43,041 nt of DNA from a virus: the IMG/VR virus record IMGVR_UViG_3300048837_000454, positions 1 through 43,041 of that record, one strand, 5' to 3'. Shown piece by piece: positions 28,054-41,952 of this stretch (position 1 is the stretch's first letter; each line of letters starts with the position of its first letter). The notes beneath the pieces are model-generated. The model was not told the DNA's origin, made no database searches, and worked only from the letters and a program-made list of their open reading frames with translations. A program made the translations under genes and the position numbers.

Positions 28054-28074
28054 TCGGGCCAGTCAGACCGCGCG

Positions 28075-28138
28075 CCCAACCATCGAAACGGTTGGGGGAT
28101 GCCGACAGTATATCACATCTGAATAATCATCTGTGATA
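28075..28138. terminator. Hairpin pair between convergent operons
   Basis: CCCAACC (28075-28081) pairs with GGTTGGG (28090-28096), and TATCACA (28111-28117) pairs with TGTGATA (28132-28138). Neither has a long T tract. They lie where the rightward late block and the leftward early operon converge (gap 28054-28259), a normal place for bidirectional termination. The remainder of the gap holds no gene. Confidence 0.5.
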
Positions 28139-28259
28139 ATAACGGTAGACGTAATTATTGTTCAGCGCGGATTTCGCGAATAGCGGGGCGCGGTAGAGAG
28201 AAAACGGCCGTGATGAGAGGCGCTTACTTGATTTAATACGTGTTAGTCGTCATCTAGGC

Positions 28260-28799: not shown

Positions 28800-28813
28800 G
28801 ATGACCCCCTTTG

Positions 28814-29164: not shown

Positions 29165-29271
29165 GAGCCGACCTCATCTGCGTTTGGGTCGGCGTCAACC
29201 TCCACGACCGTCGCGAACCGCTTAGCCACGTCTTCGATCTCCGTTGTCACTGTAATGCGGTATCGTGTCAT
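29161..29271 (-). CDS. 36-residue protein F', shortened copy
   Basis: ATG 29271 has GGGGAGA upstream. The product begins MTRYRITVTTEIEDVAKRFAT and jumps directly to VVEVDADPNADEVGS. Compared with the plus-strand copy (1819-1998), 26 internal codons are missing in frame. It is translationally coupled to both neighbours. It supports the inverted-cassette interpretation. Confidence 0.65.
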   Translation of the reverse strand: MTRYRITVTTEIEDVAKRFATVVEVDADPNADEVGS

Positions 29272-29272
29272 A

Positions 29273-29701
29273 TCAATCTCCCCACGGAAGTGAAACGGCG
29301 CTCTCTAGCCGATATGCTACCTGTTCATAACATTCGACGGCGCTGCGTGATGGTATGTGCTTTTGCGTGCGGCCGGAACACACATCGCACAAGCATTCGC
29401 CAATGCGGATCTCTGCCGGGTTCAAAAGTATGTCACAGCGGCTGCATGTTGGCCCCTGCGGCCCTTGCCTTTTGCCCTTAATGCTGCCCGTGCCACGCGG
29501 TCGAAACCTGTTACATCGACGCAGGCGATTATGCATTGTCGGTCTAGACATGCCATGACGGCGTGCCAACTCTTCAATGCTTGCCCCGGCATTGTACTCA
29601 TCAACCAATGCGCTCGGAGATGGCGCATTAGCGCAAATACTGACATGCCGCGCAAAGCCACCAGGGTCATCCGTTTCAAGCCCACATATTATGCAAATCA
29701 T
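29273..29701 (-). CDS. Zinc-finger/HTH protein E'
   Basis: ATG 29701 has GGGAGGA upstream and overlaps the stop of the membrane protein. The 142-residue product has CIICG...H..IC at the N-terminus, a central helix-turn-helix (SIEELARRHGMSRPTMHNRL), and a zinc ribbon (CSRCDIL ... CDVC). It is the counterpart of 1469-1822. It is a probable DNA-binding regulator with unknown sites. Confidence 0.7.
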   Translation of the reverse strand: MICIICGLETDDPGGFARHVSICANAPSPSALVDEYNAGASIEELARRHGMSRPTMHNRLRRCNRFRPRGTGSIKGKRQGPQGPTCSRCDILLNPAEIRIGECLCDVCSGRTQKHIPSRSAVECYEQVAYRLESAVSLPWGD

Positions 29702-30351
29702 GTCACATCCTCCCAAACGACCGGTCGTTGTCGGTCGGTCTGTCTGTTTTTCGCCACCTTGCGTGTCAGGGCAGGGGAGGCCAGTATGAAGTCTTCACGC
29801 GCCCACGGCGCAACCCTGTCCCGCCCGCCCTCGCTTTCCAGCGCGCCTACCCGCTGCATCTCGGCGCGCATGTCACTATACCGGCTTGTAATATTCGTGA
29901 TATTTTCCTCGCTGGCCTTGCCGCTGATAATGTTGCGGCTCCAGTACCAGTTGGCGCGTTCCAGCCTGTCAGCAACCAGCATCGCCTCATGGGCGCTTAA
30001 GCCCAAATCGGTCAAGCGCAGCGTCTGCCCGTCATGCTGAACGATTTTGATCTGCCGTGGCTTGTCCTCGCCGCTGTACACGCGCTGCACCAACTCATCA
30101 GCGGCGATTGGCTGCATATACATCGGCACATACAGCACTAGCCCGACAGTGCCATAAAGGCAGAAAATAAGCGACAAGACGCTAAAGGCAATCCACCATG
30201 GCAGCGGGTCAAGCGTCACGCCGTAGATAATCAGCAGCATGCCAACGCCCAGCACTACAGATGAGCGCACAATGCGCTCTGCCGCAACCTCTCGCAAGCG
30301 CAGCCGCTGTTCGCTGGCATAGCGTTGGGTCGTGCTTTCAAACGTGCGCAC
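29698..30351 (-). CDS. Two-pass membrane protein D'
   Basis: A GTG at 30351 fused to the previous stop (TAGTG) gives VRTFESTTQRYASEQ, matching the start of the plus-strand copy (MTRTFES). An upstream ATG at 30366 is less likely. The 217-residue protein has two membrane segments (about residues 32-50 and 55-75) and a soluble C-terminus with LTDLGLSAHEAMLVADRLE and WYWSR. It is more diverged from its copy than the flanking small genes are. Confidence 0.7.
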   Translation of the reverse strand: MRTFESTTQRYASEQRLRLREVAAERIVRSSVVLGVGMLLIIYGVTLDPLPWWIAFSVLSLIFCLYGTVGLVLYVPMYMQPIAADELVQRVYSGEDKPRQIKIVQHDGQTLRLTDLGLSAHEAMLVADRLERANWYWSRNIISGKASEENITNITSRYSDMRAEMQRVGALESEGGRDRVAPWAREDFILASPALTRKVAKNRQTDRQRPVVWEDVT

Positions 30352-30506
30352 TAGCTGCCCTCCCACTCGCCGTCATAATCCTCAAGCATCAGCACATACT
30401 CGTTCTGTTCGCAACGGCCGTGCAACATGGCGGCAGCAACGGCTAACAATGCCGACACGACAAGGCCGGAGAAGATACCGATTAACAGGGCCGGGATAGG
30501 GTTCAT
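30351..30506 (-). CDS. 51-residue membrane protein B'
   Basis: This is the same length as the plus-strand copy (495-650) and nearly identical in protein (MNPIPALLIGIFSGLVVS, tail EYVLMLEDYDGEWEGS). It overlaps the preceding stop by four bases. Conservation in two opposite operons supports expression and a useful function. Confidence 0.7.
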   Translation of the reverse strand: MNPIPALLIGIFSGLVVSALLAVAAAMLHGRCEQNEYVLMLEDYDGEWEGS

Positions 30507-30886
30507 AGCGCACCTCCGTCAATCGCCTTCAACAGCCGGTCGCCCGTTTTGCGCAGCGCCTCGCTTGTGTTCTGGTACATCTCTTGCCAATATTCGCGCT
30601 CTTCCACAATTTTATGACGTATGGCGTTTAAGCTCTGATACGAAGTCTGCCACTCTACCACCTTGCTTACCGCCTCCTCGCACGCTTCCCACGCATCGAC
30701 CAACTCATCTGACATCTGCGCTATGATGTCTTCCAGGCGGCGGATTTCGGCGCCGGTAATATCGGCGCGGATGTATTTAACATCATCCTCTGAGGCCATA
30801 TCAGGGTCGGCAAACCAATCATCAAATAGGCTATCTGTGCCGTAAGTCGGTATCCATATTTCGCGCGGCGCATTGTCTACGTCCAT
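30503..30886 (-). CDS. Coiled-coil early protein A'
   Basis: The 127-residue protein has GGAGAG before ATG 30886. It starts MDVDNAPREIWIPTYGTDSL, shares the EIRRLEDIIAQMSDELVDAWEA helix with the left-edge gene, and lacks about 30 residues in between. The C-terminus is a different coiled coil (VEEREYWQEMYQNTSEAL). It starts the duplicated cassette in the leftward operon. Confidence 0.72.
   Translation of the reverse strand: MDVDNAPREIWIPTYGTDSLFDDWFADPDMASEDDVKYIRADITGAEIRRLEDIIAQMSDELVDAWEACEEAVSKVVEWQTSYQSLNAIRHKIVEEREYWQEMYQNTSEALRKTGDRLLKAIDGGAL
30758..30871. repeat. Arm 2 of the long inverted repeat
   Basis: This is the inverted counterpart of bases 1-114, nearly identical. Because the arms face each other across about 30 kb, recombination between them could invert the block of virion genes. 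Confidence 0.85.
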
Positions 30887-30897
30887 CTCTCACTCTC

Positions 30898-31203
30898 CTA
30901 AAACGGCGGCGCCTCCAACCCTAACGCCGCATAAGCCTCATCAACGCTTTCGACCACGTACACCGGTAAGTGCGACCAGTCCGCATGGAACCGCTTCTCA
31001 TCCGGCGTCAGCTTCCGGCGGGATGGTGAAAGCGACCCGTCCTTAATCTCGAATAACATGATCTTGCCCGTGAAGCCGACAACCAAATCAGGGAAGCCGC
31101 CGCCGACATCGCCCGTGTCGTGTACCCTGCACCCTGGGATGCGCCGCAGCGCGTCGCGGATTGCCGCGTGATTGCCGTCGCGGCGCTTGCCGTAGCTGCT
31201 CAT
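30898..31203 (-). CDS. VRR-NUC nuclease
   Basis: The 101-residue protein has the VRR-NUC core: GCRVHDTGDVGGGFPDLVVG and IMLFEIKDG, which give the PD-(D/E)xK residues Asp (FPD), Glu and Lys (EIK). Phage members resolve branched DNA or process ends. It lies after the HNH and helicase genes in a replication operon, with a four-base overlap. Confidence 0.85.
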   Translation of the reverse strand: MSSYGKRRDGNHAAIRDALRRIPGCRVHDTGDVGGGFPDLVVGFTGKIMLFEIKDGSLSPSRRKLTPDEKRFHADWSHLPVYVVESVDEAYAALGLEAPPF

Positions 31204-31577
31204 AGCTGCACCTCATCGGCATATGGCGCTGAGCGTTTCATAAGCTCTATCACCATTTGCAGGTGTTCCGTAACGTCGCCAATAGACATATCATTGTCGG
31301 GGAAATGGCGACAAAGAACGTCCATCGCCACAACATACATCCAACCAGGGACAGACTTAACCCACTCGTAATAATTAGGCTCTGTTACATGCCACTCCCT
31401 ATGACAACGTATACACAAAGTAACTAAATTGGAAATATCGTTATCTCCGCCGTCAATAACGGGGACAACGTGATGTACCTGTAAATTGCGAATAGACCCG
31501 CACCGCAAACAACACCCACCGTCTCTTTCAAAAACAACTCGCTTAACGCTTGCCTTTATTTGCACCCTTTCGCTCAT
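31200..31577 (-). CDS. HNH endonuclease
   Basis: The 125-residue protein has an HNH domain: CCLRCGSIRNLQVHHVVPV, then DGGDNDISNLVTLCIRCH, with paired cysteines for a structural zinc. It overlaps the helicase gene by four bases. HNH enzymes in replication operons may act in packaging or as free-standing homing nucleases; here the tight coupling argues for a phage function. Confidence 0.85.
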   Translation of the reverse strand: MSERVQIKASVKRVVFERDGGCCLRCGSIRNLQVHHVVPVIDGGDNDISNLVTLCIRCHREWHVTEPNYYEWVKSVPGWMYVVAMDVLCRHFPDNDMSIGDVTEHLQMVIELMKRSAPYADEVQL

Positions 31578-32890
31578 AGCTGTATCGTCTCCCGTGCCAA
31601 GTTCTTAAACGACATGCGCGGCGCATTCCAGTACAGGCGCGCCGTGCCGGTGGCGCCGTTGCGGTGCTTCGCTATGTTCAATTCAGCCTGATTCGGCACG
31701 TCTGTCGTGTCAGGGTAGTAGGCCTCATCACGATACAGAAACATCACCACATCCGCATCCTGCTCAATCTCACCGCTGTCCCGCAAGTCGCTCAAAATTG
31801 GCCGCTTGTCGTGGCGCTGTTCCACGCCGCGCGATAGCTGCGCCAATGCCAGCACCGGCACGTTAAGCGTCTTCGCCATCTGCTTCAGTCCGCGTGATAC
31901 CTCGCCCACTTCCTGAACCCGATTGCCCAGATTGCGCTCGGCTTGCATAAGCTGCAAATAATCAACCGTCACCAAGTCCAGCGGCCCGCGCATCTGTAGG
32001 CGACGGCAGCGGCTTAGCATGGCCGTGACTGTGTTGGCGGGCGTATCGTCAATGTAGATATTGCGCTGGCTCAATTCCCCAGCCGCGCGCGTGAAGGTCG
32101 TCAACTCCTGTTCGCTGAACTGCCCGCGCTGCAGCTTCTTGAAGTCCAGCCCGGTCGTCAGGCACACGAGCCGCTGCCATATCTGGATTTGTGGCATCTC
32201 CAGATTGAACCGCGCAACCGTCAGCCCCGCCGCCGATACGTGATGCGCTATCGTGCCCTCAAGCGCCGACTTGCCCATGCCCGGCCGCCCAGCCAAGACG
32301 TACAGATTGCCCGGTTGCAGGCCGTCTATAATCCCGTCCACATCGGCCAGGCCGGTCATGATGCCCACGGCCTGGCCACCTGCAGCGTGCCGGGCCAGCG
32401 TCACGTCTAACAGCGCAGACACGCCGTCATGCGCTGATACCAGATCGCCGCCACCTACGCCGTCCGTGATGTCCAGCAACGCTCCCTGCGCCGTGGCCAT
32501 CACCGCCTCAAGGCTGCTGGTCATGTCATAACCCGCCGTCGCTATCGTGCCCGCCGCGCGGATGAGACGCCGCCGCTGGGCAGACGCGGCCACGATGCGC
32601 CCGTAATGCCGCGTGTTGATGCTTGTCGGCACTTCGTTCAGCAGGCCGATAACATACGCCTCAGTTTCTTGGTCGGCAGTGACGGCGCTGCATACGGTGC
32701 GAAAATCAATCGGGATTTGCTTCTCCTGTAGCCCAAGCATGGCCCGGTACAAGTCTTTATTCTTGACGCTGTAAAAATCGGCCGGTGTCAGAAACGGCAC
32801 ATCAAAGATAGCGTCAGGGTCAATCAGCAGCCCGCCTAAGACGGCTTGCTCAGCCGCTATATCGTGCGGAGGCAGTATGTTGTCGCTCAT
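31574..32890 (-). CDS. dnaB: Replicative DnaB-like helicase
   Basis: ATG 32890 overlaps the stop of the preceding gene and gives 438 residues (an in-frame GTG start upstream would add seven). The N-terminal domain begins LPPHDIAAEQAVLGGLL as in DnaB. The RecA-like part has Walker A (AGRPGMGKSAL) and Walker B (LVTVDYLQLM), with the helicase motif LAQLSRGVEQR and SGEIEQDADVV near the end. It unwinds the phage origin as a hexamer. Confidence 0.93.
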   Translation of the reverse strand: MSDNILPPHDIAAEQAVLGGLLIDPDAIFDVPFLTPADFYSVKNKDLYRAMLGLQEKQIPIDFRTVCSAVTADQETEAYVIGLLNEVPTSINTRHYGRIVAASAQRRRLIRAAGTIATAGYDMTSSLEAVMATAQGALLDITDGVGGGDLVSAHDGVSALLDVTLARHAAGGQAVGIMTGLADVDGIIDGLQPGNLYVLAGRPGMGKSALEGTIAHHVSAAGLTVARFNLEMPQIQIWQRLVCLTTGLDFKKLQRGQFSEQELTTFTRAAGELSQRNIYIDDTPANTVTAMLSRCRRLQMRGPLDLVTVDYLQLMQAERNLGNRVQEVGEVSRGLKQMAKTLNVPVLALAQLSRGVEQRHDKRPILSDLRDSGEIEQDADVVMFLYRDEAYYPDTTDVPNQAELNIAKHRNGATGTARLYWNAPRMSFKNLARETIQL

Positions 32891-33765
32891 CCTACCACCG
32901 CCCGCTTCCACGCAAACTCAATATCTTTCGGTGTCATCTTGCGTATATCCTCCCAACGGCCGATGCGGTCTACTATCGGCAGAACGCCCGCCGCTTCCAA
33001 CTCTTGCCGCGCTTCCTGATACGGCCGTGTCATGGCCGAAAGCAGGATGGATACGTCTGGCTTGGATGGCTTGCCCGCGCCGCGCCCCTTGTCCCGCCAT
33101 GTCACAAGTATCTTGCGGACATAGGCCCAGGACTTGCCGTTATGCACCGCCGCTTCATGGATAGCGTCCAATACCATCTGTGCGCCTACCTCATCTATGA
33201 ACGCGCCGATGTCGTCCGCTATCTTCTTGTTGATTGCGCCCGCGCCGCATAGCTGAGCGTAAGCGTCGAAAACGGCGGCGGCGGCTTCTGTATCTGTTCT
33301 GTTCTGTATCTGTTCTGTATCTGTCTCTATAGCGTGACTGAAACGTTTCTGTAACGTTACATCATTCGTTACGTCCGTTTCGGTGTCCGTTACGGCCTTT
33401 TTGCGCTCACGGTAAGCCGCAACGCGGGCGCTGCTGTTATCGCTTTTGTACTGTCGCTTGCCCCAGTTTGGAAGCTCATAGCCGCGTCCAACGGCTAGCA
33501 TGTTAAGCTGCTGGAACGCGCTGATAATCTTGCCGAACGTCACCATGTCCAGCCCTGTCTCAGCCATTATCTCATCCTCCTCAAGCCACAAGTCTTCACC
33601 TAGCATCAGCTTGCCGCGTTCCGGCGAATCGTTCGCAAGACATAGCAGCACAAGCCACACGCCCATGACGGTCGCTTTCGGCTGGCCGCTGATACGCACG
33701 GCGCGAGACATCTTGCGGTCGTTGAGGGCTTCACTGTAGAATCGGAACCAGGGCAAGCTAGCCAT
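32887..33765 (-). CDS. Replication organiser (DnaD-like)
   Basis: The 292-residue protein starts LPWFRFYSEALNDRKMSRAV, a pattern typical of phage replisome organisers with an N-terminal winged helix. The middle is a low-complexity linker (TDTETDVTNDVTLQ). The C-terminus has a DnaD-type helix ending in SWAYVRKILVTWRDKGRG. It precedes dnaB, so it likely loads the helicase at the origin. The linker DNA holds repeats described as an origin candidate. Confidence 0.8.
   Translation of the reverse strand: MASLPWFRFYSEALNDRKMSRAVRISGQPKATVMGVWLVLLCLANDSPERGKLMLGEDLWLEEDEIMAETGLDMVTFGKIISAFQQLNMLAVGRGYELPNWGKRQYKSDNSSARVAAYRERKKAVTDTETDVTNDVTLQKRFSHAIETDTEQIQNRTDTEAAAAVFDAYAQLCGAGAINKKIADDIGAFIDEVGAQMVLDAIHEAAVHNGKSWAYVRKILVTWRDKGRGAGKPSKPDVSILLSAMTRPYQEARQELEAAGVLPIVDRIGRWEDIRKMTPKDIEFAWKRAVVG
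33287..33360. repeat. Short repeats and palindromes, candidate origin
   Basis: Near-repeats of TCTGTATCTGT/TCTGTTCTGTA run from 33287 to about 33327. Perfect palindromes GAAACGTTTC (33340-33349) and GTAACGTTAC (33351-33360) follow. Many phages carry their origin inside the initiator gene. The same GAAACGTTTC core recurs at 41006-41015. Confidence 0.4.
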
Positions 33766-34084
33766 TTATATTTGCTCCGTTCTTATTTATGATCAGGCTC
33801 CCGCAGCGCTGAGGAATCTTGTACTTTCTGGCAAGAACCGAGAAGTCAGGCTCGTTCACCGCGTCCCGCAAAAACTCCTCAACAAACAGCCTCCCCTTGT
33901 ATCCTTTTTGTGGCGGATACTTTTCGTCTTCACAGAGAGAGATCGCTTGCACTATGCGGTGTAAGTCTTCAAACGATGGAATCCATCGCTGCCCCGTTTC
34001 TGCGAACTCAACCACCGCCCATCGCTTGTCCCAGGGAGTGTTGGTAGTTGCCTTAACGGACATCTTCTTTTTGCTGTTAGACAT
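33758..34084 (-). CDS. 108-residue conserved protein of unknown function
   Basis: Starts in frame exist at 34129 and 34084; the latter (MSNSKKKMSVKATT) is chosen because the earlier one overlaps the methylase gene more. The protein contains RWAVVEFAETGQRWIPSFED and a helix-turn-helix-like end (FSVLARKYKIPQRCGSLI). It overlaps the replication gene by eight bases. No family is recognised. Confidence 0.6.
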   Translation of the reverse strand: MSNSKKKMSVKATTNTPWDKRWAVVEFAETGQRWIPSFEDLHRIVQAISLCEDEKYPPQKGYKGRLFVEEFLRDAVNEPDFSVLARKYKIPQRCGSLIINKNGANING

Positions 34085-35141
34085 CTTCGTTTCCCCAAGT
34101 GCTCCAGCCGTCATGTGCCTCTCTTGCAAACAGCTCTATAAATGGCCCTTCGTGTACACGGGCGATATCTGCCCTGAATGCTTCTGGTTTCTTGCTATGA
34201 TTCTCAACCGGCAAAGTTAGAATACTGTCAAGCCTCTCGGACGGATGGAGATTGCCCCCCCGCGTGCCAATGAGAAGAAGCTCGTGATACGTCCTCAGCC
34301 ACCAGCCGATTCCGGGAGCGCGATCCTTGATCCAAACCCGATTAGATTTATACTCAAAGCCCCATGCATCCATCACCCTTAGCGCGTCCGGCAACAGCGG
34401 AACCGTTGCCCACAAATACAACACGCTCGGCGCGTCTGCTATATCACCAACCGGAAGGCCGCAGATTTCTTCTGTTGTCATCGTTGGGTAGTGCTGTGCA
34501 GCGCTTTGCTCAAATCCGCTGTTGTTATATGACCACGGCGGGTCTGCATAAATGATCCTATACTTCCCGGCCATCGGCGGCGGCTCTGTCTTCGTGTCGT
34601 GATTGTGTATTCGCTTGGCTTGCGGGATCGTGATCTCCCCCGCCTTGACTTGCTCGAATAGTTCCGGCGCGTCCTCTGCAAGTCTCTTCGCATCGGACAC
34701 GTAACGGCCACTTACCCCCACGGCTGCGCCAGCCTGATCGCGTGCTTGTCCCTGCTCAAGGGTAGGAAATATTTCCTTACCTTTATTGGCGCTTGCTATG
34801 CTCATGCGCTCCCGCGCCTCGGCCGCAAACATGGGTTCAATATCCACGGCAACACAAGCACACTGCCCCTTGTCCAAGTGCCTGCGCTTCAAGTTCAGCG
34901 ACACGACGAAAGACACAAGCGAACCATGCCCACCCCATGTCCTGAACTGCATTGGCGTGTCTGTCTCTATGCAAGCACGGTGTCTGTTACGGCCGTCCAC
35001 TATCCGGCCGTCTGGGTGCAACCAGATCGGCTCCAGCAGGCCATTGGCGGCGATGTCGGCTTTCAGGTCTTCGTACTCCTGGCCCTGTAACAGTGGGAAA
35101 ATATTAGCGACTTCGTGATACCCGCGTTCTTCTTCTGTCAT
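34077..35141 (-). CDS. ParB-domain/MT-A70 methyltransferase fusion
   Basis: The 354-residue protein has an N-terminal ParB/sulfiredoxin-like domain (ANGLLEPIWLHPDGRIVDGR then NRHRA, residues 32-56), a central HTH-like part (QAGAAVGVSGRYVSDAKRL), and an MT-A70 adenine methylase with YADPPWSY (DPPW at residues 200-203). MT-A70 enzymes make N6-methyladenine. The fusion is a known phage form and may protect phage DNA or regulate it. A candidate promoter and folded leader precede it. Confidence 0.88.
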   Translation of the reverse strand: MTEEERGYHEVANIFPLLQGQEYEDLKADIAANGLLEPIWLHPDGRIVDGRNRHRACIETDTPMQFRTWGGHGSLVSFVVSLNLKRRHLDKGQCACVAVDIEPMFAAEARERMSIASANKGKEIFPTLEQGQARDQAGAAVGVSGRYVSDAKRLAEDAPELFEQVKAGEITIPQAKRIHNHDTKTEPPPMAGKYRIIYADPPWSYNNSGFEQSAAQHYPTMTTEEICGLPVGDIADAPSVLYLWATVPLLPDALRVMDAWGFEYKSNRVWIKDRAPGIGWWLRTYHELLLIGTRGGNLHPSERLDSILTLPVENHSKKPEAFRADIARVHEGPFIELFAREAHDGWSTWGNEDV

Positions 35142-35168
35142 ATCCTATCTGCCCCTTACTTGAGTACA

Positions 35169-35240
35169 CAAAAAGCCACTTCCTTAACTTGTGATGCTTA
35201 GGTCACAACGGGGCAGTCCCGATAAGGAAGTGGCTCTTTG
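35169..35240 (-). promoter_or_regulatory. Three-way folded leader/attenuator before the methylase gene
   Basis: Arms 35169-35186 and 35223-35240 pair over 18 bases with one mismatch. The interval folds into two further hairpins: TTGTGA/TCACAA (35189-35194 with 35203-35208) and CGGG/CCCG (35209-35212 with 35218-35221). Only three bases are left unpaired at the junction. In the leftward transcript the 3' arm runs into TTTTT, like an intrinsic terminator, 28 bases before the methylase ATG. A segment at 35281-35296 can instead pair with 35195-35210, so two states are possible. Confidence 0.6.
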
Positions 35241-35302
35241 TCCACAAGTTTTCGATTATAAGCAAAAAACTGCCCGCAAACGTTGTCACCTAAGCACTTA
35301 TG

Positions 35303-35332
35303 ATTATACCCCAGCCGCGCCCCCTGCGTCAA
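35303..35332 (-). promoter_or_regulatory. Candidate leftward promoter for the methylase operon
   Basis: On the minus strand, TTGACG (35332-35327) and a perfect TATAAT (35308-35303) are 18 bases apart. The transcript would begin near 35296, exactly at the 16-base segment that can pair with the folded leader. This promoter would separate the methylase/replication genes from the upstream regulator genes. Confidence 0.55.
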
Positions 35333-35337
35333 CCAAG

Positions 35338-35511
35338 TCAACGCACCGTCTCCCTCTCCCCACTCAACTCAGCGAGCCTAAGCTGCGCGTTCCTGACGGC
35401 CGTGTACGCCTGCTGGTATCCAGGCGAGCCGGGCGCGCAACGGCGCAGCGCCTGCCGCGCGCGTGCCAGGTCTTTCCGCGTGCGTTCTATCTGTGTATCT
35501 ACTTTATTCAT
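35338..35511 (-). CDS. 57-residue helical protein
   Basis: ATG 35511 has GAGGA upstream. The product (MNKVDTQIERTRKDLARARQ, then GYQQAYTAVRNAQLRLAEL) is a predicted two-helix protein. It sits between the HTH regulator and the methylase promoter. It is a common form of small phage early protein; function is unknown. Confidence 0.55.
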   Translation of the reverse strand: MNKVDTQIERTRKDLARARQALRRCAPGSPGYQQAYTAVRNAQLRLAELSGERETVR

Positions 35512-35578
35512 GGTGTCCTCGCTCTGTTTAATTGTGTATCCTTGCCATGCCTAGACTTGCCCGGCCTTGCCGCGCCTA

Positions 35579-35785
35579 TTATGAATCAGGCGCGCCTGCA
35601 TTTAGAAGACGCGCCTGCATACGCTGCGCACTAAGGATTTCCTGGTCAACCATCTCTTGCACGACGCTCACCGGAATGAACCACTGCCGGTTACGCATGA
35701 CGCCGTGCTTAGCGGCGATGTCCAGCGCCGTTGGCCGGCTGATGGCCAAAATACTTTGAAGCTGTTTAACTGTTATCTCATCCAT
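35579..35785 (-). CDS. HTH regulator beside the divergent switch
   Basis: ATG 35785 (MDEITVKQLQSILAISRPTA) is chosen over the upstream GTG because it starts the recognisable domain. The 68-residue protein has a MerR/excisionase-like helix-turn-helix (LQSILAISRPTALDIAAKHG) and a wing-like RNRQWFIPVSVVQEMV. Its promoter is under the operator it probably binds, so it is a likely repressor or excisionase-type regulator of the switch. Confidence 0.65.
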   Translation of the reverse strand: MDEITVKQLQSILAISRPTALDIAAKHGVMRNRQWFIPVSVVQEMVDQEILSAQRMQARLLNAGAPDS

Positions 35786-35791
35786 ACTGGG

Positions 35792-35820
35792 ATAATAGCA
35801 CCAAATAATAGAGAAGTCAA
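35792..35820 (-). promoter_or_regulatory. Leftward early promoter
   Basis: On the minus strand TTGACT (35820-35815), a 17-base spacer and TATTAT (35797-35792) form a near-consensus sigma-70 promoter. It drives the HTH gene and the genes after it. Its -35 box overlaps the GTCAAGCACTTGAC operator. Confidence 0.65.
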
Positions 35821-35843
35821 GCACTTGACGCCAACTGCTTGAC
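35816..35843. promoter_or_regulatory. Operator between divergent promoters
   Basis: GTCAAGCACTTGAC (35816-35829) is a perfect inverted repeat with a two-base centre. A related half site, CTGCTTGAC, follows at 35835-35843. The two sites cover the -35 boxes of both divergent promoters. A dimeric HTH protein bound here would control both directions. Confidence 0.55.
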
Positions 35844-35867
35844 ATGTGGGGTAAAGTAGTTTACACT
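35839..35867 (+). promoter_or_regulatory. Rightward early promoter
   Basis: Perfect TTGACA (35839-35844), a 17-base spacer and TACACT (35862-35867) lie 42 bases before the first rightward gene. The -35 box is inside the repeated operator half site. Confidence 0.65.
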
Positions 35868-35908
35868 ATAGACAACTTACCAACAGGCACAAGGCACGGA
35901 GGAACACA

Positions 35909-36145
35909 ATGGCAGAACTAGTAGGGTTTTTCGCAGGGCAGGGGTACACGAAGGCGCAAGAGGTCGCGCTTGAGGAGGCGTTTCAACATTGGCTCGCCCT
36001 TGACAACGCCGCCGACCCCTACGCGGACGAAGACAAGAACACCCGCGCGGAGACGGCATGGTCGGAGTTCTCGGCGCTTCGTTTACATTACGAAGATGTG
36101 AACATGCGGGACGACATCGCCCTGAACGCGCCTCCGGGATACTGA
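35909..36145 (+). CDS. First rightward early protein, 78 residues
   Basis: The ATG has GGAGGAACACA upstream, an excellent ribosome site. The acidic, helical product (MAELVGFFAGQGYTKAQEVA) contains AETAWSEFSALRLHYEDVN. As the first gene after a strong promoter it is expected to be highly expressed early, a place where host-takeover or anti-defence proteins are common. No family is recognised. Confidence 0.65.
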   Translation: MAELVGFFAGQGYTKAQEVALEEAFQHWLALDNAADPYADEDKNTRAETAWSEFSALRLHYEDVNMRDDIALNAPPGY

Positions 36146-36146
36146 A

Positions 36147-36227
36147 ATGGAAGACAAAATCATCGTAATCGTAGGCATCTTGTTAGTTTTGTTAGCATGG
36201 GCGTCTTTGCAGGAGAGCGACAAATGA
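36147..36227 (+). CDS. 26-residue membrane peptide
   Basis: The reading frame begins MEDKIIVIVGILLVLLAWAS and ends ESDK, a single membrane segment with charged ends. It begins one base after the previous stop and overlaps the next ATG by four bases. No ribosome site is clear. The coupling supports translation. Confidence 0.4.
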   Translation: MEDKIIVIVGILLVLLAWASLQESDK

Positions 36228-36310
36228 GCATTGTAGGCATGGTGATTGCAAGTGTGGCCCTAATCGTGGCCGTGGCGTTATTTGTAGTTGACAGGTGGGC
36301 AAGACGATGA
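36224..36310 (+). CDS. 28-residue membrane peptide
   Basis: MSIVGMVIASVALIVAVALF is followed by VVDRWARR. AGGAGAG lies upstream of the ATG with good spacing, and both ends overlap neighbouring genes by four bases. It is a single-pass peptide of unknown role, adjacent to another one. Confidence 0.5.
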   Translation: MSIVGMVIASVALIVAVALFVVDRWARR

Positions 36311-36831
36311 CAATGAAAGCATGGCATTTTGTGGGAGAAACTCTGAGAGATGGCCGCCCTGTCCCAGCCGACGGTGAGTGGCTTAAACACGACGGCGAGC
36401 TGGAGATGTGTAAATCAGGATTGCACGCTAGTGTACGCCTAATTGACGCGCTGCAATACGCGCCGGGTAACACCATTTGCCGCGTTGAATTGGACGGCGA
36501 AATTGTCGAAGATGACGACAAGGTAGTAGCCACCCGTCGTCGCATTTTGTGGCGCGTTGACGGTGAGGAGTTACTGCAAGAGTTTGCGCGCTGGTGCGCG
36601 CTGCAATTTATCCACCTTTGGGACGCGCCGGACGTGGTGCGTGAATATCTGGAGACGGGCCGCGAGGATTTGCGGTCTGCGGCAAAGGCTGCGGCAAGTG
36701 CTGCGGCAAAATGGGATGCGGCATGGTCTGCGGCATGGGATGCGGCAAGTGATGCGGCAAGTGATGCGGCAAGGGATGCCCAAAATACCAAGTTGGAGCA
36801 AATGGTGCGGGCAGCAGGACGAGCGAAATGA
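36307..36831 (+). CDS. DUF7666-like protein with Ala/Trp repeat tail
   Basis: The 174-residue protein has a conserved phage pattern: MKAWHFVGETLRDGRPVPAD, HDGELEMCKSGLHASVR and LDALQYAPGNTICRVELDGE (with ALQYAPG as the core). An alpha-helical domain and an Ala-rich repetitive tail follow (KWDAAWSAAWDAASDAASDA). Proteins of this type occur in many phages but no activity is known to me. The start ATG overlaps the preceding stop. Confidence 0.65.
   Translation: MTMKAWHFVGETLRDGRPVPADGEWLKHDGELEMCKSGLHASVRLIDALQYAPGNTICRVELDGEIVEDDDKVVATRRRILWRVDGEELLQEFARWCALQFIHLWDAPDVVREYLETGREDLRSAAKAAASAAAKWDAAWSAAWDAASDAASDAARDAQNTKLEQMVRAAGRAK
36739..36774 (+). repeat. 12-base tandem repeat within the Ala-rich tail
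   Basis: Three GATGCGGCAAGT-like units follow one another, inside a longer imperfect tract from about 36669. They encode DAAS repeats. Slippage could change repeat number without breaking the frame. Confidence 0.7.
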
Positions 36832-37073
36832 ACTGGCAGCTGTGCGCACAAATATGCGCAGACCCGTACCGGTACGCCCACATGTGGCGGCCGCTGCACG
36901 ACGCGCTGGGCATTGCGCCCGGCGACAAAATCCCGCAGGGCGGGCTGACATCGCCGGAGCCTATCGCATTAGGCTGGCTCTCAGTGGCCCGGCAGCACCC
37001 GCAGCAGCGGTACAAAATGCCAGACAACAGGCGCATGTCCGCGCCAAAGCGAGGTGTGAATTGGCTGGGATAA
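36828..37073 (+). CDS. 81-residue early protein
   Basis: ATG 36828 overlaps the previous stop. The product contains ICADPYRYAHMWRPLHDALG and ends MPDNRRMSAPKRGVNWLG. It has many Arg and Trp residues and no recognised domain. It overlaps the next small gene. Confidence 0.5.
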   Translation: MNWQLCAQICADPYRYAHMWRPLHDALGIAPGDKIPQGGLTSPEPIALGWLSVARQHPQQRYKMPDNRRMSAPKRGVNWLG

Positions 37074-37243
37074 AACTGAACGGCACGATACACGCCGACG
37101 CGCAGGGCACATACATGATGTGCGGGCAGAAGCGGGTGCCGGTGAAACTGGTAGACGCGAACGGTAACGAAGTGAAGCCGGAAACGGTAAAGGAACAGAA
37201 CGATGACAAACGCATTACAGACGCAACAGCAATCGGCAATTGA
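37061..37243 (+). CDS. 60-residue early protein, TTG start
   Basis: TTG 37061 has GAGGTG five bases upstream. The product (LAGIKLNGTIHADAQGTYMM, then VPVKLVDANGNEVKPETVK) is beta-rich, like a small OB or SH3-type fold. It overlaps the following gene by 41 bases. Function is unknown. Confidence 0.5.
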   Translation: MAGIKLNGTIHADAQGTYMMCGQKRVPVKLVDANGNEVKPETVKEQNDDKRITDATAIGN

Positions 37244-38117
37244 GCAGGTCGTCATTCAGGGCGACTTGTCGCAGCTTACAGCGGGTCAGCGCGTAGACTA
37301 CTATCGACAGGTGTGCAACAGCGTGGGGCTAAACCCATTTACCAAGCCGTTCGACTATATCAAACTGAATGGCAAGTTGACCCTGTACGCCAAAAAAGAC
37401 GCCACGGATCAGCTTCGCAGCCTGCGCGGTGTATCCATTGGCAAACCTGATATTGAATACCTTGATGATTTGGTAGTCGTGACTGTCACGGCACAGGATG
37501 CCAGCGGGCGTACTGACAGCGACTTGGGTGCTGTAACCATCGGCAACCTGAAAGGCGATGCCCGCGCCAATGCTATGATGAAAGCAATCACGAAAGCGAA
37601 GCGCCGCGTGACACTTTCAATTTGTGGGCTGGGCTGGCTTGATGAAACGGAACTGGAAACGATACCCAGCGCCCAGCCGGTAGACGTAGACACGGAGACG
37701 GGCGAGATTGTAGACGCGCCCACGCCTCAACCAAACGGCAACGGCAAATCAACGAGCCGCCCCATGCCTCCACAGGCGTTGCAAGGCTATCTTCGCAAGG
37801 TGGCCTCTGAGGGGTTGGATAAAGTGGGCACGCAGGCAGACGCGCAGCAGACGGCGTCAACGTTGACAAAGATGGTCGGCGAAGACTTCCGGCACATGTT
37901 TCTTGACTGGCTGTTTGGCGTGAAAAGCACCAAAGAATTGACAGTAGGCCAGCATGCCGCAATCCGGCGGTGGGCCGGTTGGCGCAAAGATAATAATGAC
38001 GAGTGGCATCTGAACGATGACACCGTAAAAGAGGCCGCCTCTGCTTTGCGCCAGGCGCAATTGGACGCGGGTCAGGGCGACCTGTTTGAGGAAGTGAACG
38101 CGGAATTGTTTCCGTAA
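37203..38117 (+). CDS. Probable single-strand annealing/recombination protein
   Basis: The 304-residue protein has the pattern of a widespread phage family: QLTAGQRVDYYRQVCNSVGL, NPFTKPFDYIKLNGKLTLYA, KKDATDQLRSLRGVS, and KGDARANAMMKAITKAKRR followed by VTLSICGLG. The family is found with recombination genes and is thought to act like RecT/Rad52-type annealing proteins; this is the likely but unproven role. The C-terminus is a linker and helical domain. It lies mid-operon in the early region. Confidence 0.65.
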   Translation: MTNALQTQQQSAIEQVVIQGDLSQLTAGQRVDYYRQVCNSVGLNPFTKPFDYIKLNGKLTLYAKKDATDQLRSLRGVSIGKPDIEYLDDLVVVTVTAQDASGRTDSDLGAVTIGNLKGDARANAMMKAITKAKRRVTLSICGLGWLDETELETIPSAQPVDVDTETGEIVDAPTPQPNGNGKSTSRPMPPQALQGYLRKVASEGLDKVGTQADAQQTASTLTKMVGEDFRHMFLDWLFGVKSTKELTVGQHAAIRRWAGWRKDNNDEWHLNDDTVKEAASALRQAQLDAGQGDLFEEVNAELFP

Positions 38118-38169
38118 TAGTACTTAGCGCGCCCCGCCGGTGGCGTCGTAACCGGCAAGGAAGATGGAC

Positions 38170-38349
38170 ATGAAATACCTGAACGTACACTGGATAGCTG
38201 CCGCGCCGGATGACGCAGACGAAGAGGCACTGCGGCTGTGGGCAGCGCAGATCACACCAAACGCCACCACCGGCTTTCACGGCCATGACCAAATCATCAG
38301 TCACATCTGGATCGAACGCGAGGAGGATGGCGATGGCGAGGAAGAGTAA
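38170..38349 (+). CDS. 59-residue acidic protein
   Basis: ATG 38170 has GGAAG at good spacing; ATG 38164 is too close to it. The product has HWIAAAPDDADEEALRLWAA and an acidic tail (EREEDGDGEEE). It overlaps the next gene. No family is recognised; its place before a HicA-like gene does not by itself make it an antitoxin. Confidence 0.5.
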   Translation: MKYLNVHWIAAAPDDADEEALRLWAAQITPNATTGFHGHDQIISHIWIEREEDGDGEEE

Positions 38350-38593
38350 ACCAGACGGGCGTGGCGGCACGAAGCCGGTCAAGGATGACCGTGAGTTTAT
38401 CAGCCGTGCGAGTAAAGGCTGCTGCATCGAAAACGGCAACGGCTCGCACTTCAAAGCGACCCGGCCCGATGGCGACACCATGACGGCGTATTACACGCAC
38501 GGCGACAGGTATCCGCGTGGTATCGGCATCGCCCTCGCAAAGTGGCTGGCCGCGGCTGGGTTGGTGCTGGCCGTGGCGTGGCTGTTCTTTTAG
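38333..38593 (+). CDS. HicA-like domain with C-terminal membrane anchor
   Basis: ATG 38333 has AGGAGG six bases upstream. The 86-residue protein has KGCCIENGNGSHFKATRPDG and TMTAYYTHGDRYPRGIGIAL, resembling the double-stranded-RNA-binding-like fold of HicA toxins (G-SH in the key place). A hydrophobic helix follows (LAAAGLVLAVAWLFF). A membrane anchor is unusual for HicA. The homology is by eye only. Confidence 0.5.
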   Translation: MARKSKPDGRGGTKPVKDDREFISRASKGCCIENGNGSHFKATRPDGDTMTAYYTHGDRYPRGIGIALAKWLAAAGLVLAVAWLFF

Positions 38594-38902
38594 CAATCCC
38601 GGCGGCTGCCAGTCGATAGGCCCGCCGATTGTGCCAGGTGCACGATGCCTACTAGCGCCCTGGCCGATGTCCTAGAGTCTCAATTTCCGGTAGGTGTGTT
38701 TTATCGTTGCGGCGGCGAGGAAGTAAGGTGCTTTGTTTAAAATCTTGGAAAGGTGTGTGTAGAAGTCGGCGCAAAGCCCGCTGCGAATAGAGACAGCGCC
38801 CCCACGCTGGATGTATTAGGGCAATGCGCAACAGCACTCGACCGCCGTGCCCCGCGCCGGACTAGTCAACCCGGCGCGGGGATAGTTAAGTGAGGTATTG
38901 AG
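38594..38902 (+). ncRNA. 309-base gap with strong hairpin, possible structured RNA
   Basis: No credible gene was found on either strand. A perfect 11-base-pair hairpin, CCCCGCGCCGG/CCGGCGCGGGG around a 10-base loop, lies at 38850-38881. Other weaker inverted repeats occur upstream. The gap is by far the longest unassigned one in the compact rightward operon. It could hold a small RNA or a packaging/regulatory site. Confidence 0.4.
38850..38881 (+). terminator. Perfect GC-rich hairpin
   Basis: Eleven consecutive pairs with a 10-base loop, without a T tract after it, lie 21 bases before the next ATG. It may be a transcript end, an RNA-processing site or part of a larger fold. Confidence 0.45.
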
Positions 38903-39103
38903 ATGGACATTACCGAAATCCCAACAAGTGAACTAAAGAACGATCTGACTGAATCGCTGCTCGACATCAAAGTGTGCGAAGTCGCACAGGCGCACAACAT
39001 TACCAGGTACAAAGGCGGCTCGGTAAAGCGTCGGCTAAACGTTAACCGCAAGATTGTCGAAGCGATTGAGGCTGAATTGGCGCGACGTGAGGTGACAAGA
39101 TGA
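38903..39103 (+). CDS. 66-residue helical protein (paralogue of 40763-40981)
   Basis: ATG 38903 has GAGG upstream. The protein shares its plan with 40763-40981: a short start (MDITEIPTSELKNDLTESLL), a central loop, and an RKIVEAIEAELARRE end (counterpart TIAKRLEKEIARRK). It is a two-helix small protein of unknown function, apparently duplicated in the operon. Confidence 0.6.
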   Translation: MDITEIPTSELKNDLTESLLDIKVCEVAQAHNITRYKGGSVKRRLNVNRKIVEAIEAELARREVTR

Positions 39104-39321
39104 ACGAATGGATCGACGCAACGGTTGAACAGCCGAACCCATACGAGGCGGTTTTGGCTCTCGAAGATGGCAAATCATACTGCATTGCTTATGTTGACGA
39201 ACTCTGGACCAAGGGGGGAGCCGTCAAATACAGATGGTGCATTCCCGGCCTGCCACTCGTCGCGCCAAATGTTACGCACTGGATGCCGCTTCCGGAAAAG
39301 CCGGGGAAGGGGACACGATGA
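39100..39321 (+). CDS. DUF551-like protein
   Basis: The 73-residue protein has the DUF551 pattern: WIDATVEQPNPYEAVLALED near the start and VTHWMPLPEKPG at the end. Members are widespread in phages and of unknown function. Overlaps of four bases at both ends indicate coupled translation. Confidence 0.7.
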   Translation: MNEWIDATVEQPNPYEAVLALEDGKSYCIAYVDELWTKGGAVKYRWCIPGLPLVAPNVTHWMPLPEKPGKGTR

Positions 39322-39551
39322 ACGACTGGACCTTAGCCAGCGACGCCCTTCCTCCCGAACGCGCAACCATCGAAGCCCGCATCGTTAATGAAGACGGCAG
39401 CCTTTACGGCGATGTGATCTGTGAGCGGATTGGCGATTACTTGTTCTACTGCGGCATCGGGCAGGTGGTAGTGACGGCAAGCTCACCGGCGTTTGCGCAG
39501 TGGCGGTTCAGTGACGGCGCGGATGCAAGGGAGGACAACGATGATCTTTGA
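39318..39551 (+). CDS. DUF551-like second protein
   Basis: The 77-residue product begins MNDWTLASDALPPERATIEA, with an acidic end (DGADAREDNDDL). The start resembles the previous DUF551-like protein in style but lacks the HWMPLP end. It is a probable diverged relative. Function is unknown. Confidence 0.5.
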   Translation: MNDWTLASDALPPERATIEARIVNEDGSLYGDVICERIGDYLFYCGIGQVVVTASSPAFAQWRFSDGADAREDNDDL

Positions 39552-39873
39552 ATCGCTCTGGGATTCAGCCAAGCGGGGTGAGCTGCTCCTGGTCGATGGT
39601 GGCTTCTGCCACTGGCATCTACGCCGCGACGGCCAGCTCACCATCCGCGAGATAATCAGCACGCGGCCCGGCGCTGGCTCGGAGATGCTGCGCGTGCTGA
39701 AACGCACGCCGGACGCGACGTGCCTGTTTGCCAAATGCCCTGCCGATTTGGCCGCTAACGATTGGTACGCGCGGCGCGGGTTTGTGGACAAGGGGACAGA
39801 AACGACACGAAACGGCCGTGTGCTGAGACTGTGGCGGTATCCGCTACAAGGCAAGCGGGAGAGCAACTCATGA
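39541..39873 (+). CDS. GNAT-like acetyltransferase
   Basis: ATG 39541 overlaps the previous gene. The 110-residue protein matches a compact GNAT form known from phages: DGGFCHWHLRRDGQLTIREI, GAGSEMLRVLKR as the acetyl-CoA loop, and CPADLAANDWYARRGFVDKG near the end. It is shorter than usual GNATs. The acceptor is unknown; related phage enzymes have been linked to modified bases or host proteins. Confidence 0.65.
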   Translation: MIFESLWDSAKRGELLLVDGGFCHWHLRRDGQLTIREIISTRPGAGSEMLRVLKRTPDATCLFAKCPADLAANDWYARRGFVDKGTETTRNGRVLRLWRYPLQGKRESNS

Positions 39874-40084
39874 CACGACACCGACTCTACAAACCCCGCC
39901 GCACCAAACCGGCAACGCACTGCCAACACTGCGGCGTCAAGCGGCCGCCGAATCGGCTGTACTCGTACATTGACGGTAACAATGCCGCGATTACGGCACG
40001 GCCGGTAGCCCGGATTTGTGCTTTGAGTGTTACGAGCGGCAATATGGCCCGCAGGAACGGCCGTCGCAGGAGATGGAGGATTGA
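39870..40084 (+). pseudogene. Zinc-ribbon gene split by a frameshift
   Basis: ATG 39870 gives MTRHRLYKPRRTKPATHCQH with CQHC. Around 39978-39995 the coherent reading moves to the -1 frame, giving DYGTAGSPDLCFECYERQYG and ending at 40082-40084, just before the next ATG. In the original frame the protein becomes a random-looking Arg-rich sequence fused to the next gene. A one-base change (real or a sequence error) explains this. Confidence 0.55.
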
Positions 40085-40085
40085 C

Positions 40086-40532
40086 ATGAGCGATCACGAA
40101 AACGACACGCCGCCCGAAAGAATCTGGCTGCAATGGTATCAGGAGTATCAAGTGAGTTACGACGACGACAACGAGATAGAAATAGTCAGCGCCACACCGC
40201 CGCTCGTGGCCAATCATCCGGACGACAGGACGTGGTGTGACGAGCCGGTGCATGAGCATGACATTGCGTATGTCCAGACGGCCGTGCATGACGCGGAGGT
40301 TGCGCGGCTGCGAGAGCAAATCGATGCGCAAGCCGCCGAGATTGCGCGGCTGCGGCTTATTGCCAACGGCACGGACGACGGGCGGTTACACGCCATTGCC
40401 CGCCTGATTGCCGAGTTGCAAGAGGTCGAGGCACGCGCCAAAAGGCACGACGACATGACCAAGGCCAAACCGGCCGATGTTGTTGCCGATCTGAAAGCGC
40501 AGATCGCGCAAATGCAAGAGGTGGCAAAATGA
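40086..40532 (+). CDS. Coiled-coil early protein with ERIWLQW start
   Basis: The ATG has AGGAGATGGAGG upstream. The 148-residue protein begins MSDHENDTPPERIWLQWYQE, contains TWCDEPVHEHDIAYVQTAVH, and has a long coiled coil (EVARLREQIDAQAAEIARLR). It is similar in plan to proteins A and A' (REIWIPTYG start plus coiled coil). This is a common phage early protein type, of unknown function. Confidence 0.6.
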   Translation: MSDHENDTPPERIWLQWYQEYQVSYDDDNEIEIVSATPPLVANHPDDRTWCDEPVHEHDIAYVQTAVHDAEVARLREQIDAQAAEIARLRLIANGTDDGRLHAIARLIAELQEVEARAKRHDDMTKAKPADVVADLKAQIAQMQEVAK

Positions 40533-40750
40533 TCTATATCTATCTGGCAAGCTTCGTCGAAGGTATTGCGGTCAGGCAGCTATTGGAATTATTACTGCCT
40601 ATTACTTTAATTATGGCGTGGCTGAGTTTGGCTTATGGTTTGCGCAACAGCACCCACGCTATTGCCCGCGCCATCTTGTGGCTAACGGCCGCGGTGTTGC
40701 TGGTATTTTCCCTGGTTGTATTGCGGTGGCCTACAGGATTGCCACATTAA
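40529..40750 (+). CDS. 73-residue two-pass membrane protein
   Basis: The ATG overlaps the previous stop. Two hydrophobic segments are visible (about residues 20-37 and 47-65, LWLTAAVLLVFSLVVL). The DNA at 40560-40640 is slightly AT-rich. It has no known family and is a small early membrane protein like those in the other cassettes. Confidence 0.6.
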   Translation: MIYIYLASFVEGIAVRQLLELLLPITLIMAWLSLAYGLRNSTHAIARAILWLTAAVLLVFSLVVLRWPTGLPH

Positions 40751-40762
40751 GACGGGACGGAT

Positions 40763-40981
40763 ATGAATAACTTGAAGGCATTGTCAGATGGTGAATTGCA
40801 GGCTCAGTTGAAGGCGGCGCGCGCTGATATCGAGACGTGCGACAAGGCGATGTTGTACGTCGGGATCACGGCCGAGCAGCTGGGTAAGCTGGAGTATATC
40901 CGTGGCGTGAATGTCACGATTGCCAAGCGGCTTGAGAAGGAGATTGCGCGGCGCAAGGCGAAACGTGAACGGCGGCGGTAG
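40763..40981 (+). CDS. 72-residue helical protein (paralogue of 38903-39103)
   Basis: It begins MNNLKALSDGELQAQLKAAR and ends LEKEIARRKAKRERRR, a very basic tail. The plan matches 38903-39103. No enzymatic motif is seen. Confidence 0.6.
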   Translation: MNNLKALSDGELQAQLKAARADIETCDKAMLYVGITAEQLGKLEYIRGVNVTIAKRLEKEIARRKAKRERRR

Positions 40982-40996
40982 GCAGTCGCACGGATG

Positions 40997-41025
40997 TTCC
41001 AAAATGAAACGTTTCATGTTACAAT
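40997..41025 (+). promoter_or_regulatory. Candidate promoter with palindromic operator
   Basis: TTCCAA (40997-41002), 17 bases and TACAAT (41020-41025) form a possible promoter. The perfect 14-base palindrome ATGAAACGTTTCAT (41004-41017) fills the spacer. A repressor or activator site inside the spacer is likely. The GAAACGTTTC core also occurs in the origin candidate. Confidence 0.5.
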
Positions 41026-41044
41026 GCAGGAGCGTGGGGGGGCG

Positions 41045-41260
41045 ATGAACAATCCGAAGATGACAGAGCAGACACGACTAGCGATTGAGCACGTCCTGCT
41101 ATCCGGCTGGGTGCTGGTGTTTGAACCCGGCAATGGCCCGGAACGCAAGCATCCGCGCTTTGTCGTGATGACAGCGACGGGCGACGTGGTAGCCTCTGCC
41201 AAGACGCAAGAGCAGGCCGTGTTCAAAGCGTGGATGGGCTACATCTTCACCGACGCTTAA
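41045..41260 (+). CDS. 71-residue protein (paralogue of 1973-2200)
   Basis: ATG 41045 follows GGGGGG. The protein begins MNNPKMTEQTRLAIEHVLLS and ends EQAVFKAWMGYIFTDA. It is a clear relative of protein G near the left edge. Function is unknown. Confidence 0.65.
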   Translation: MNNPKMTEQTRLAIEHVLLSGWVLVFEPGNGPERKHPRFVVMTATGDVVASAKTQEQAVFKAWMGYIFTDA

Positions 41261-41298
41261 GTAAGGGCGCGGGTTGTGTTAAAATGGGAAGAGAATAT

Positions 41299-41952
41299 AT
41301 GAGCGAGAAACCAACGATAGCGAATGCCCTGTCTGATTTGCCGCATGTGTCTATTCTGGCACTGGAGCCGTTTCAGGGCGGGTTGAAAGAACTGACGGCG
41401 CGGGAATACGGCAAGCTGAAGAAGTCGCTGCTGGAGAATGGCGTGATTGTGCCGTTCTTCGTGTGGGCTGAAACGGGCAAGCTGCTAGACGGCCACCAGC
41501 GGCGGCGCGTGTTTGAAAGCGAGGGCTGGCAGATGGATGTGCCGGTCGTGTATATCAGCGCTGATAACGAACAGGATGCGAAGCGCAAGCTGCTGGTTAT
41601 AAGTTCGCAATACGGCAAGGTGACGCAAGAGGGCTTCGACGAATTCACGTTCGACCTTGACGATGAATGGATTCTGGACACGGCGCATTTCGACGCGCTG
41701 CCGTTTGTGTTTAGCGGGCTTATGCCAACCGACCCGGCAAATGATGCCAATGCGGAATGGGAGGGGATGCCGGAATTTGAGCAAGAGGATGCATTTGGGG
41801 CGGTTTGTACAATTAAGGTTCATTTCAGAACAGATGATGATATAGGGCATTTTTTTGATCTTCTTGGTCAACCAATGAACCGTGTTTCTATTTGGTTCCC
41901 AGTGCTTGAGCGCGTTAATTTAAAAGAGTTCGTTGCCCATGAGCAATCCTAA
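41299..41952 (+). CDS. ParB-like protein linked to glycosyltransferase
   Basis: ATG 41299 (MSEKPTIANALSDLPHVSIL) has GGGAAGAG upstream. The 217-residue protein has a ParB-type domain (YGKLKKSLLENGVIVPFFVW, LLDGHQRRRVFESEGW). Its C-terminal part (IKVHFRTDDDIGHFFDLLGQ, SIWFPVLE) is like that seen in proteins next to TAGT-type enzymes. DNA of the C-terminal part, from about 41805, is clearly more AT-rich than the ParB half, so the gene may be a junction of two modules. The end overlaps the next gene. Confidence 0.7.
   Translation: MSEKPTIANALSDLPHVSILALEPFQGGLKELTAREYGKLKKSLLENGVIVPFFVWAETGKLLDGHQRRRVFESEGWQMDVPVVYISADNEQDAKRKLLVISSQYGKVTQEGFDEFTFDLDDEWILDTAHFDALPFVFSGLMPTDPANDANAEWEGMPEFEQEDAFGAVCTIKVHFRTDDDIGHFFDLLGQPMNRVSIWFPVLERVNLKEFVAHEQS

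What the first reader, a model, noticed from the sequence alone, without database searches (positions are those of the whole stretch)
35142..35337. Switch-like leader between a TATAAT promoter and the ParB/MT-A70 gene
From the leftward promoter at 35303-35332 the RNA would start with a 16-base segment (35296-35281) complementary, with one mismatch, to 35210-35195. That second segment is also part of a compact three-way fold (18-pair stem 35169-35240 plus two hairpins) whose 3' arm ends in a T5 run. The two structures exclude each other, as in attenuators and riboswitches. The fold also looks like a T-shaped palindrome at the DNA level.
Basis: partly seen in the sequence, partly recalled or inferred. 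Interest (0 to 1): 0.72.

Follow-up and report, generated by a model that had tools for sequence, protein, structure and literature searches.

The report
C4-like antisense RNA switch in phage
The stretch before a phage's DNA-replication genes makes an RNA that can fold in two competing ways, one of them a compact cloverleaf-like RNA with the same shape and target layout as the C4/CI antisense RNAs with which phages P1 and P4 silence their own early genes, yet with no detectable sequence kinship to them.

Summary
A near-consensus promoter (TTGACG-18-TATAAT) starts a leader RNA with two mutually exclusive folds. The 5' segment a (35296-35281) pairs with a' (35210-35195), and the pairing extends further: b (35275-35269) pairs with b' (35217-35211). 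The other fold is a 74-nt three-way RNA (35241-35168). Computed step by step, a:a' wins until the 3' arm of the stem emerges, then the three-way RNA wins.

A second phage contig, otherwise a mosaic of different genes, carries the same 162-nt block with one substitution. Its downstream gene is unrelated and its promoter hexamers are kept, so this is a portable regulatory leader.

The shape, the collinear upstream targets and the possible second contact at the Shine-Dalgarno match the C4 (P1) and CI (P4) antisense-RNA leaders. P1's own leader shows the same computed switch. Rfam's C4 model does not match, so I call it C4-like, not C4.

Best explanation: an antisense-RNA switch that turns down the leftward replication operon, in cis and probably in trans. 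Pairing is computed; transcription, processing and effect are inferred. Covariation could not be tested because only two nearly identical copies were found.

The parts
35303..35332 (-). Leader promoter: -35 TTGACG (35332-35327), 18-nt spacer, -10 TATAAT (35308-35303)
   Evidence: 11/12 consensus match, best of 28000-43041; relative L127 has TTGACC-18-TATAAT at 342-371 although its spacer differs
35281..35296 (-). Target/antiterminator segment a, TGCTTAGGTGACAACG, at or just after the predicted transcription start
   Evidence: 15 of 16 pairs with a'; identical in L127
35269..35275 (-). Target segment b, GGGCAGT, separated from a by TTTGC
   Evidence: 7 pairs with b', collinear with a:a'
35168..35241 (-). 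C4-like three-way RNA: 19-bp stem 35241-35223/35186-35168 enclosing two hairpins
   Evidence: -38.6 kcal/mol, z -5.4 (79-nt core); strongest of its shape in 2.5 Mb of fetched loci
35209..35221 (-). Hairpin 1 (CGGG-ACTGC-CCCG); carries b' ACTGCCC 35217-35211
   Evidence: Fold; complementary to b and to the Shine-Dalgarno region
35189..35208 (-). Hairpin 2 (TTGTGA-CCTAAGCA-TCACAA); carries most of a' (35210-35195)
   Evidence: Fold; complementary to a
35149..35157 (-). Shine-Dalgarno AAGGGG (35157-35152) overlapping a second copy of b, GGGGCAG (35155-35149): candidate second target
   Evidence: 7-9 nt complementary to b'; duplex only p about 0.05 against shuffles; the block conserved in L127 ends right after it
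34077..35141 (-). First gene behind the leader: ParB-like N-terminus fused to MT-A70 methyltransferase (354 aa)
   Evidence: phrog_12047 ParB-like and PF05063 MT-A70
31574..33765 (-). Replication genes of the same leftward run: DnaD-like loader (32887-33765) and DnaB-like helicase (31574-32911)
   Evidence: phrog_186/PF09681 and phrog_19/PF03796

Best explanation
This is the leader of the phage's leftward replication operon and works as a C4/CI-type antisense-RNA switch. RNA from the promoter at 35332-35303 begins with targets a and b. While RNA polymerase is still inside the leader, a/b pairs with b'/a'. When the 3' arm of the long stem is made, the 74-nt three-way RNA folds and frees a/b. 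The three-way RNA is then released by processing or by termination near its 3' end, and its two hairpins pair with a/b of new transcripts. Through hairpin 1 it may also pair with the Shine-Dalgarno of the first gene. This stops transcription or translation of the operon, so replication genes are expressed early and then turned down; an incoming phage with the same leader would be silenced too. Shown: the sequence elements, the complementarities, the predicted folds and the preserved block in a second phage. Inferred: transcription, processing, action in trans and direction of regulation.
For: Same fold as P1 C4 and P4 CI: 19-bp stem, hairpins 4 bp/5 nt and 6 bp/8 nt, against 17 bp, 4/4, 6/9 (P1) and 16 bp, 5/4, 6 bp with an 8-nt junction (P4). 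Same order: promoter, a-b, structured RNA, b at the ribosome-binding site, gene; the P1 annotation lists a1 48255-48261, b1 48269-48276, c4 48343-48419, a2, b2, icd 48470. Same collinear pairing and same computed switch: window P(a:a') 1.00 up to 35180 and 0.00 at 35155; P1 leader 19.6 target:C4 pairs, then about 15 C4-stem pairs. In P4 the downstream complement also falls on hairpin 1. 162 nt with one substitution in L127, flanks unalignable, downstream genes unrelated. Architecture absent in 300 shuffles. Replication genes lie downstream, as in P4.
Against: Rfam C4 (RF01695) does not match. No covariation evidence: two near-identical copies only. The second target at the Shine-Dalgarno is statistically weak (p about 0.05) and there is no a2. 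The 3' flank lacks the CCA-like end that C4 shows, so RNase P release is unsupported. No tyrosine integrase and no clear repressor found, so an immunity role lacks a lysogeny context. The P4 computation did not reproduce stem formation in the longer transcript.
Confidence: 0.58

Rival explanations
1. Pure cis attenuator: a:a' is an antiterminator, the long stem with its U5 run is the terminator, and a protein, ligand or ribosome acting on segment a decides. No free antisense RNA.
For: Folds are mutually exclusive and nearly balanced just at the U-tract (P 0.38 against 0.61 at 35165); leader conserved.
Against: A 36-nt three-way loop is unusual for a terminator; the terminator scan finds none there (it covers only loops of 3-8 nt); hairpins show their target complements just as C4 does, which a plain terminator does not need; no Rfam riboswitch match.
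Confidence: 0.22
2. DNA element: the palindromes are a replication origin, recombination site or paired operators (16-bp copies at 35195 and 35281 in opposite orientation, one at the start site).
For: T-shaped palindrome also folds on the + strand; the block sits at a junction between unrelated genes in two phages.
Against: Block is framed by promoter and Shine-Dalgarno; the stem is fully paired only in the transcribed strand (G.U against A.C); no direct repeats in the leader, while tandem 16-nt repeats typical of an origin sit in the DnaD-like gene of both phages; no other copy of the 16-mer in the window within 2 mismatches.
Confidence: 0.12
3. Recently exchanged cassette whose near-identity reflects recombination, with the structure maintained only as a stable 5' cap or terminator and without a switching function.
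For: Other segments shared by the two phages are also 96-99% identical.
Against: The twofold, collinear complementarity is far beyond chance and unneeded for a stability element.
Confidence: 0.08

Closest known systems
C4 antisense RNA of phages P1/P7 (Rfam RF01695) with targets a1b1 (RF03163) and a2b2
   Same: Three-way shape and size, promoter-a-b-RNA-b-gene order, collinear target pairing, second contact near the ribosome-binding site, same computed switch.
   Different: No match to the covariance model; a' lies in hairpin 2 and b' in hairpin 1, whereas P1 has b' in hairpin 2 and a' in the single-stranded junction; junction only 2 nt; first complement 16 nt rather than 7-11; no a2; controls replication genes, not icd-ant.
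CI RNA of satellite phage P4 (seqA/seqB/seqC)
   Same: Same fold; controls a replication operon; complements upstream (seqA-like) and downstream falling on hairpin 1 (literature PMC4825925).
   Different: No sequence match; no isrK/seqA-family element here; host and phage type differ; P4 lysogeny known, none shown here.
Transcription attenuators and riboswitches
   Same: Mutually exclusive folds ahead of a U-run.
   Different: No matching Rfam family; three-way loop instead of a simple terminator hairpin.

Membership tests
C4 antisense RNA (RF01695) | Scores above the family covariance model threshold | tested here: not met
   No match even at E 5-10; the only weak hit in the window is elsewhere, 20.6 bits. 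Positive controls P1 and P4 score 68.8 and 74.9.
C4 antisense RNA (RF01695) | Long stem enclosing two adjacent hairpins (4-5 bp and 5-6 bp) | tested here: met
   19 bp; 4 bp/5 nt; 6 bp/8 nt
C4 antisense RNA (RF01695) | Complementary targets a and b in the same leader upstream, pairing collinearly | tested here: met
   16 nt with one mismatch plus 7 nt
C4 antisense RNA (RF01695) | Second target pair downstream, b2 at the ribosome-binding site and a2 just after C4 | tested here: inconclusive
   b copy overlaps the Shine-Dalgarno, p about 0.05; no a2
C4 antisense RNA (RF01695) | RNase P release of a stable RNA of about 77 nt that acts in trans | not testable with these tools
   Needs RNA data; a GGA precedes the stem (GGW is the C4 site in PMC5320573) but the 3' CCA-like end is absent
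P4 CI immunity | Leader precedes the replication operon | tested here: met
   DnaD-like and DnaB-like genes downstream
P4 CI immunity | Temperate or plasmid-prophage life style | tested here: inconclusive
   No PF00589 integrase in the 43-kb record, which may be incomplete; ParB-like proteins present
Riboswitch/attenuator (Rfam) | Match to a known leader family | tested here: not met
   No gathering-level match in the window; only chance-level hits at E<=10
Intrinsic terminator | Short-loop GC-rich hairpin followed by a U-run | tested here: not met
   Not listed by the scan, whose loops are 3-8 nt; the loop here is 36 nt and the U5 lies in the stem base

The most novel reading that the evidence does not exclude
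A C4-type antisense-RNA control circuit that arose independently of, or diverged beyond recognition from, the proteobacterial C4/CI family. It would be in a phage lineage with no sign of lysogeny, as a portable leader that keeps its RNA specificity while the genes behind it are exchanged, so that otherwise different phages share one RNA immunity group.
Probability: 0.3. Interest if true: 0.72.

Novelty: new variant of a known kind. Interest (0 to 1): 0.55.

Why it matters
C4/CI RNAs are among the few known cases where an RNA rather than a protein sets phage immunity, and the recognised family is listed for Proteobacteria and their phages (PMC2864571). A same-shaped, same-laid-out RNA without sequence kinship, in front of a replication operon of an unclassified phage, would suggest that this circuit is a general solution that sequence models miss. 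Two mosaic phages that share the leader but not the next gene make the prediction of shared RNA immunity directly testable.

Tried and rejected
Rfam search of window and leader: no family. BLAST of the leader in phages and plasmids: none. Stem pattern in viral contigs: 0 hits, because the allowed gap (up to 34) was shorter than the 36-nt loop. b-b'-b2 pattern: 13 further hits, none folds like this. 16-mer a: three further hits, none with a partner. Upstream of a full-length ParB/MT-A70 relative in an Actinomycetota MAG: apparently coding sequence, no such leader. Covariance model over 52 loci: only the two known copies and their opposite strands. Capsid relatives of the phage do not carry the leader in the stretches held. 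CRP-like dyad TTGTGA-N8-TCACAA: this is hairpin 2, a single copy, and the spacing is not CRP's. Search for a host through the capsid protein in 396 genomes of the phylum of that MAG: one good hit in a small genome, not followed. Metagenome contigs could not be scanned.

Full report
Setting. The window is a whole virus record of 43,041 bases, a tailed phage with terminase, portal and major head protein on the + strand. A leftward run of replication genes lies behind the leader: ParB/MT-A70, DnaD-like loader, DnaB-like helicase, HNH and a small endonuclease-like protein. No annotated phage has similar DNA at the 'near' setting.

Checking the observation. The minus-strand RNA folds well beyond shuffles. 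The promoter is the best match of the right third of the window. The pairing of the 5' segment is longer than reported: after 16 positions (15 paired) and a 5-nt bulge, seven more pairs follow (b 35275-35269 with b' 35217-35211), giving a duplex of about -38 to -40 kcal/mol against a shuffled mean of -16, with no shuffle in 2000 reaching it. A search for the combined architecture (stem of at least 16 whose inner part has a nearby complement of at least 14) finds one case in the window and none in 300 shuffles. Among 1,040 stems folded from 2.5 Mb of fetched loci it is the strongest of its shape; that scan is blind to stems rich in G.U pairs and missed P1 and P4, so it is a one-sided control.

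The switch. Folding the growing transcript shows a:a' at probability 1.00 from 35190 to 35180. The two folds balance between 35170 and 35165, and the three-way fold is at 0.99 by 35155. These are equilibrium folds of truncated RNAs, not kinetics. The two states are exclusive because a' lies in hairpin 2.

Conservation. A second contig (L127, IMGVR_UViG_3300048835_000061) has the block 35309-35148 with one substitution in 162 nt. Upstream, the small gene is diverged beyond DNA alignment. Downstream the ParB/MT-A70 gene is replaced by a 90-aa gene and a Dam-type methyltransferase. The promoter hexamers are kept at the same 18-nt spacing while the spacer differs. Conservation stops right after the Shine-Dalgarno. 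The single substitution (A at 35298 to G) adds a possible pair to a:a'. Other shared segments are 67-99% identical, several of them 96-99%, so recent exchange is possible, and near-identity alone does not prove selection on the structure. Covariation cannot be judged.

What it resembles. The P1 record lists promoter, a1, b1, C4 RNA, a2, b2 and the first gene in that order. Reading that sequence shows a1 TTGACAG and b1 GTTAGTGC pairing collinearly with the C4 RNA. The present leader has promoter, a, b, three-way RNA, a b copy on the Shine-Dalgarno, and the gene. Predicted folds are superimposable in outline. As a positive control the P1 leader was folded the same way: 19.6 pairs between target region and C4 just before the 3' arm emerges, then 13-15 pairs of the C4 stem with a brief reversal, and finally the stem alone. 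In P4, the upstream complement falls on the 3' side of hairpin 2 and the downstream one on hairpin 1, as here; the P4 run did not show the final stem in the long transcript, which I count against the generality of the calculation. The literature held describes C4 as three stem-loops processed by RNase P, with one loop covering the ribosome-binding site and the other giving specificity (PMC5320573), and P4 CI RNA as terminating transcription of replication genes through seqA and seqC (PMC4825925).

Membership. Rfam's C4 model does not recognise the element though it scores P1 and P4 strongly. The positions of a' and b' in the fold differ. So it is filed as working like C4/CI, not as a member.

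Strand. The DNA palindrome is real, but the long stem is fully paired only in the leftward RNA (one G.U that would be A.C in the other strand), and promoter and Shine-Dalgarno frame the block. Tandem repeats that look like an origin are inside the DnaD-like gene in both phages, which weakens the idea that the leader is the origin.

Judgement. The elements, the complementarity and the fold are solid. That the leader regulates the replication operon by RNA pairing is likely. That a free antisense RNA acts in trans is the best single mechanism but is inferred from anatomy. Whether the phage is temperate is open (no integrase found).

Noticed in passing
41933-42799 (+): TET-associated glycosyltransferase (PF20691, E 2.5e-40), suggesting hypermodified DNA bases in this phage.
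   Followed up: no
33286-33328 and 33330-33359: Tandem 16-nt repeats and a palindrome inside the DnaD-like initiator gene; the tandem repeats recur in L127 2762-2804; likely replication origin.
   Followed up: partly
L127 2041-3201: The relative's DnaD-like protein carries an HNH-like insertion (CVYCG...CKQCN) that splits the match to the window's protein; the window has a separate HNH gene at 31200-31577.
   Followed up: no
35579-35785 (-): Small helix-turn-helix-like protein (HTH_17, E 0.003, below cut-off) behind a second leftward promoter 35820-35792, facing a rightward promoter at 35839: possible regulator at the divergence point.
   Followed up: no
L099/L113/L114 (IMGVR_UViG_3300048590_000200): A very close relative (major head protein 100% identical) whose contig breaks off just before the leader region, so the leader could not be compared.
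   Followed up: yes
35338-35511 (-): 57-aa gene directly upstream of the leader promoter; its diverged counterpart in L127 (107-331) occupies the same place, both of unknown function.
   Followed up: no
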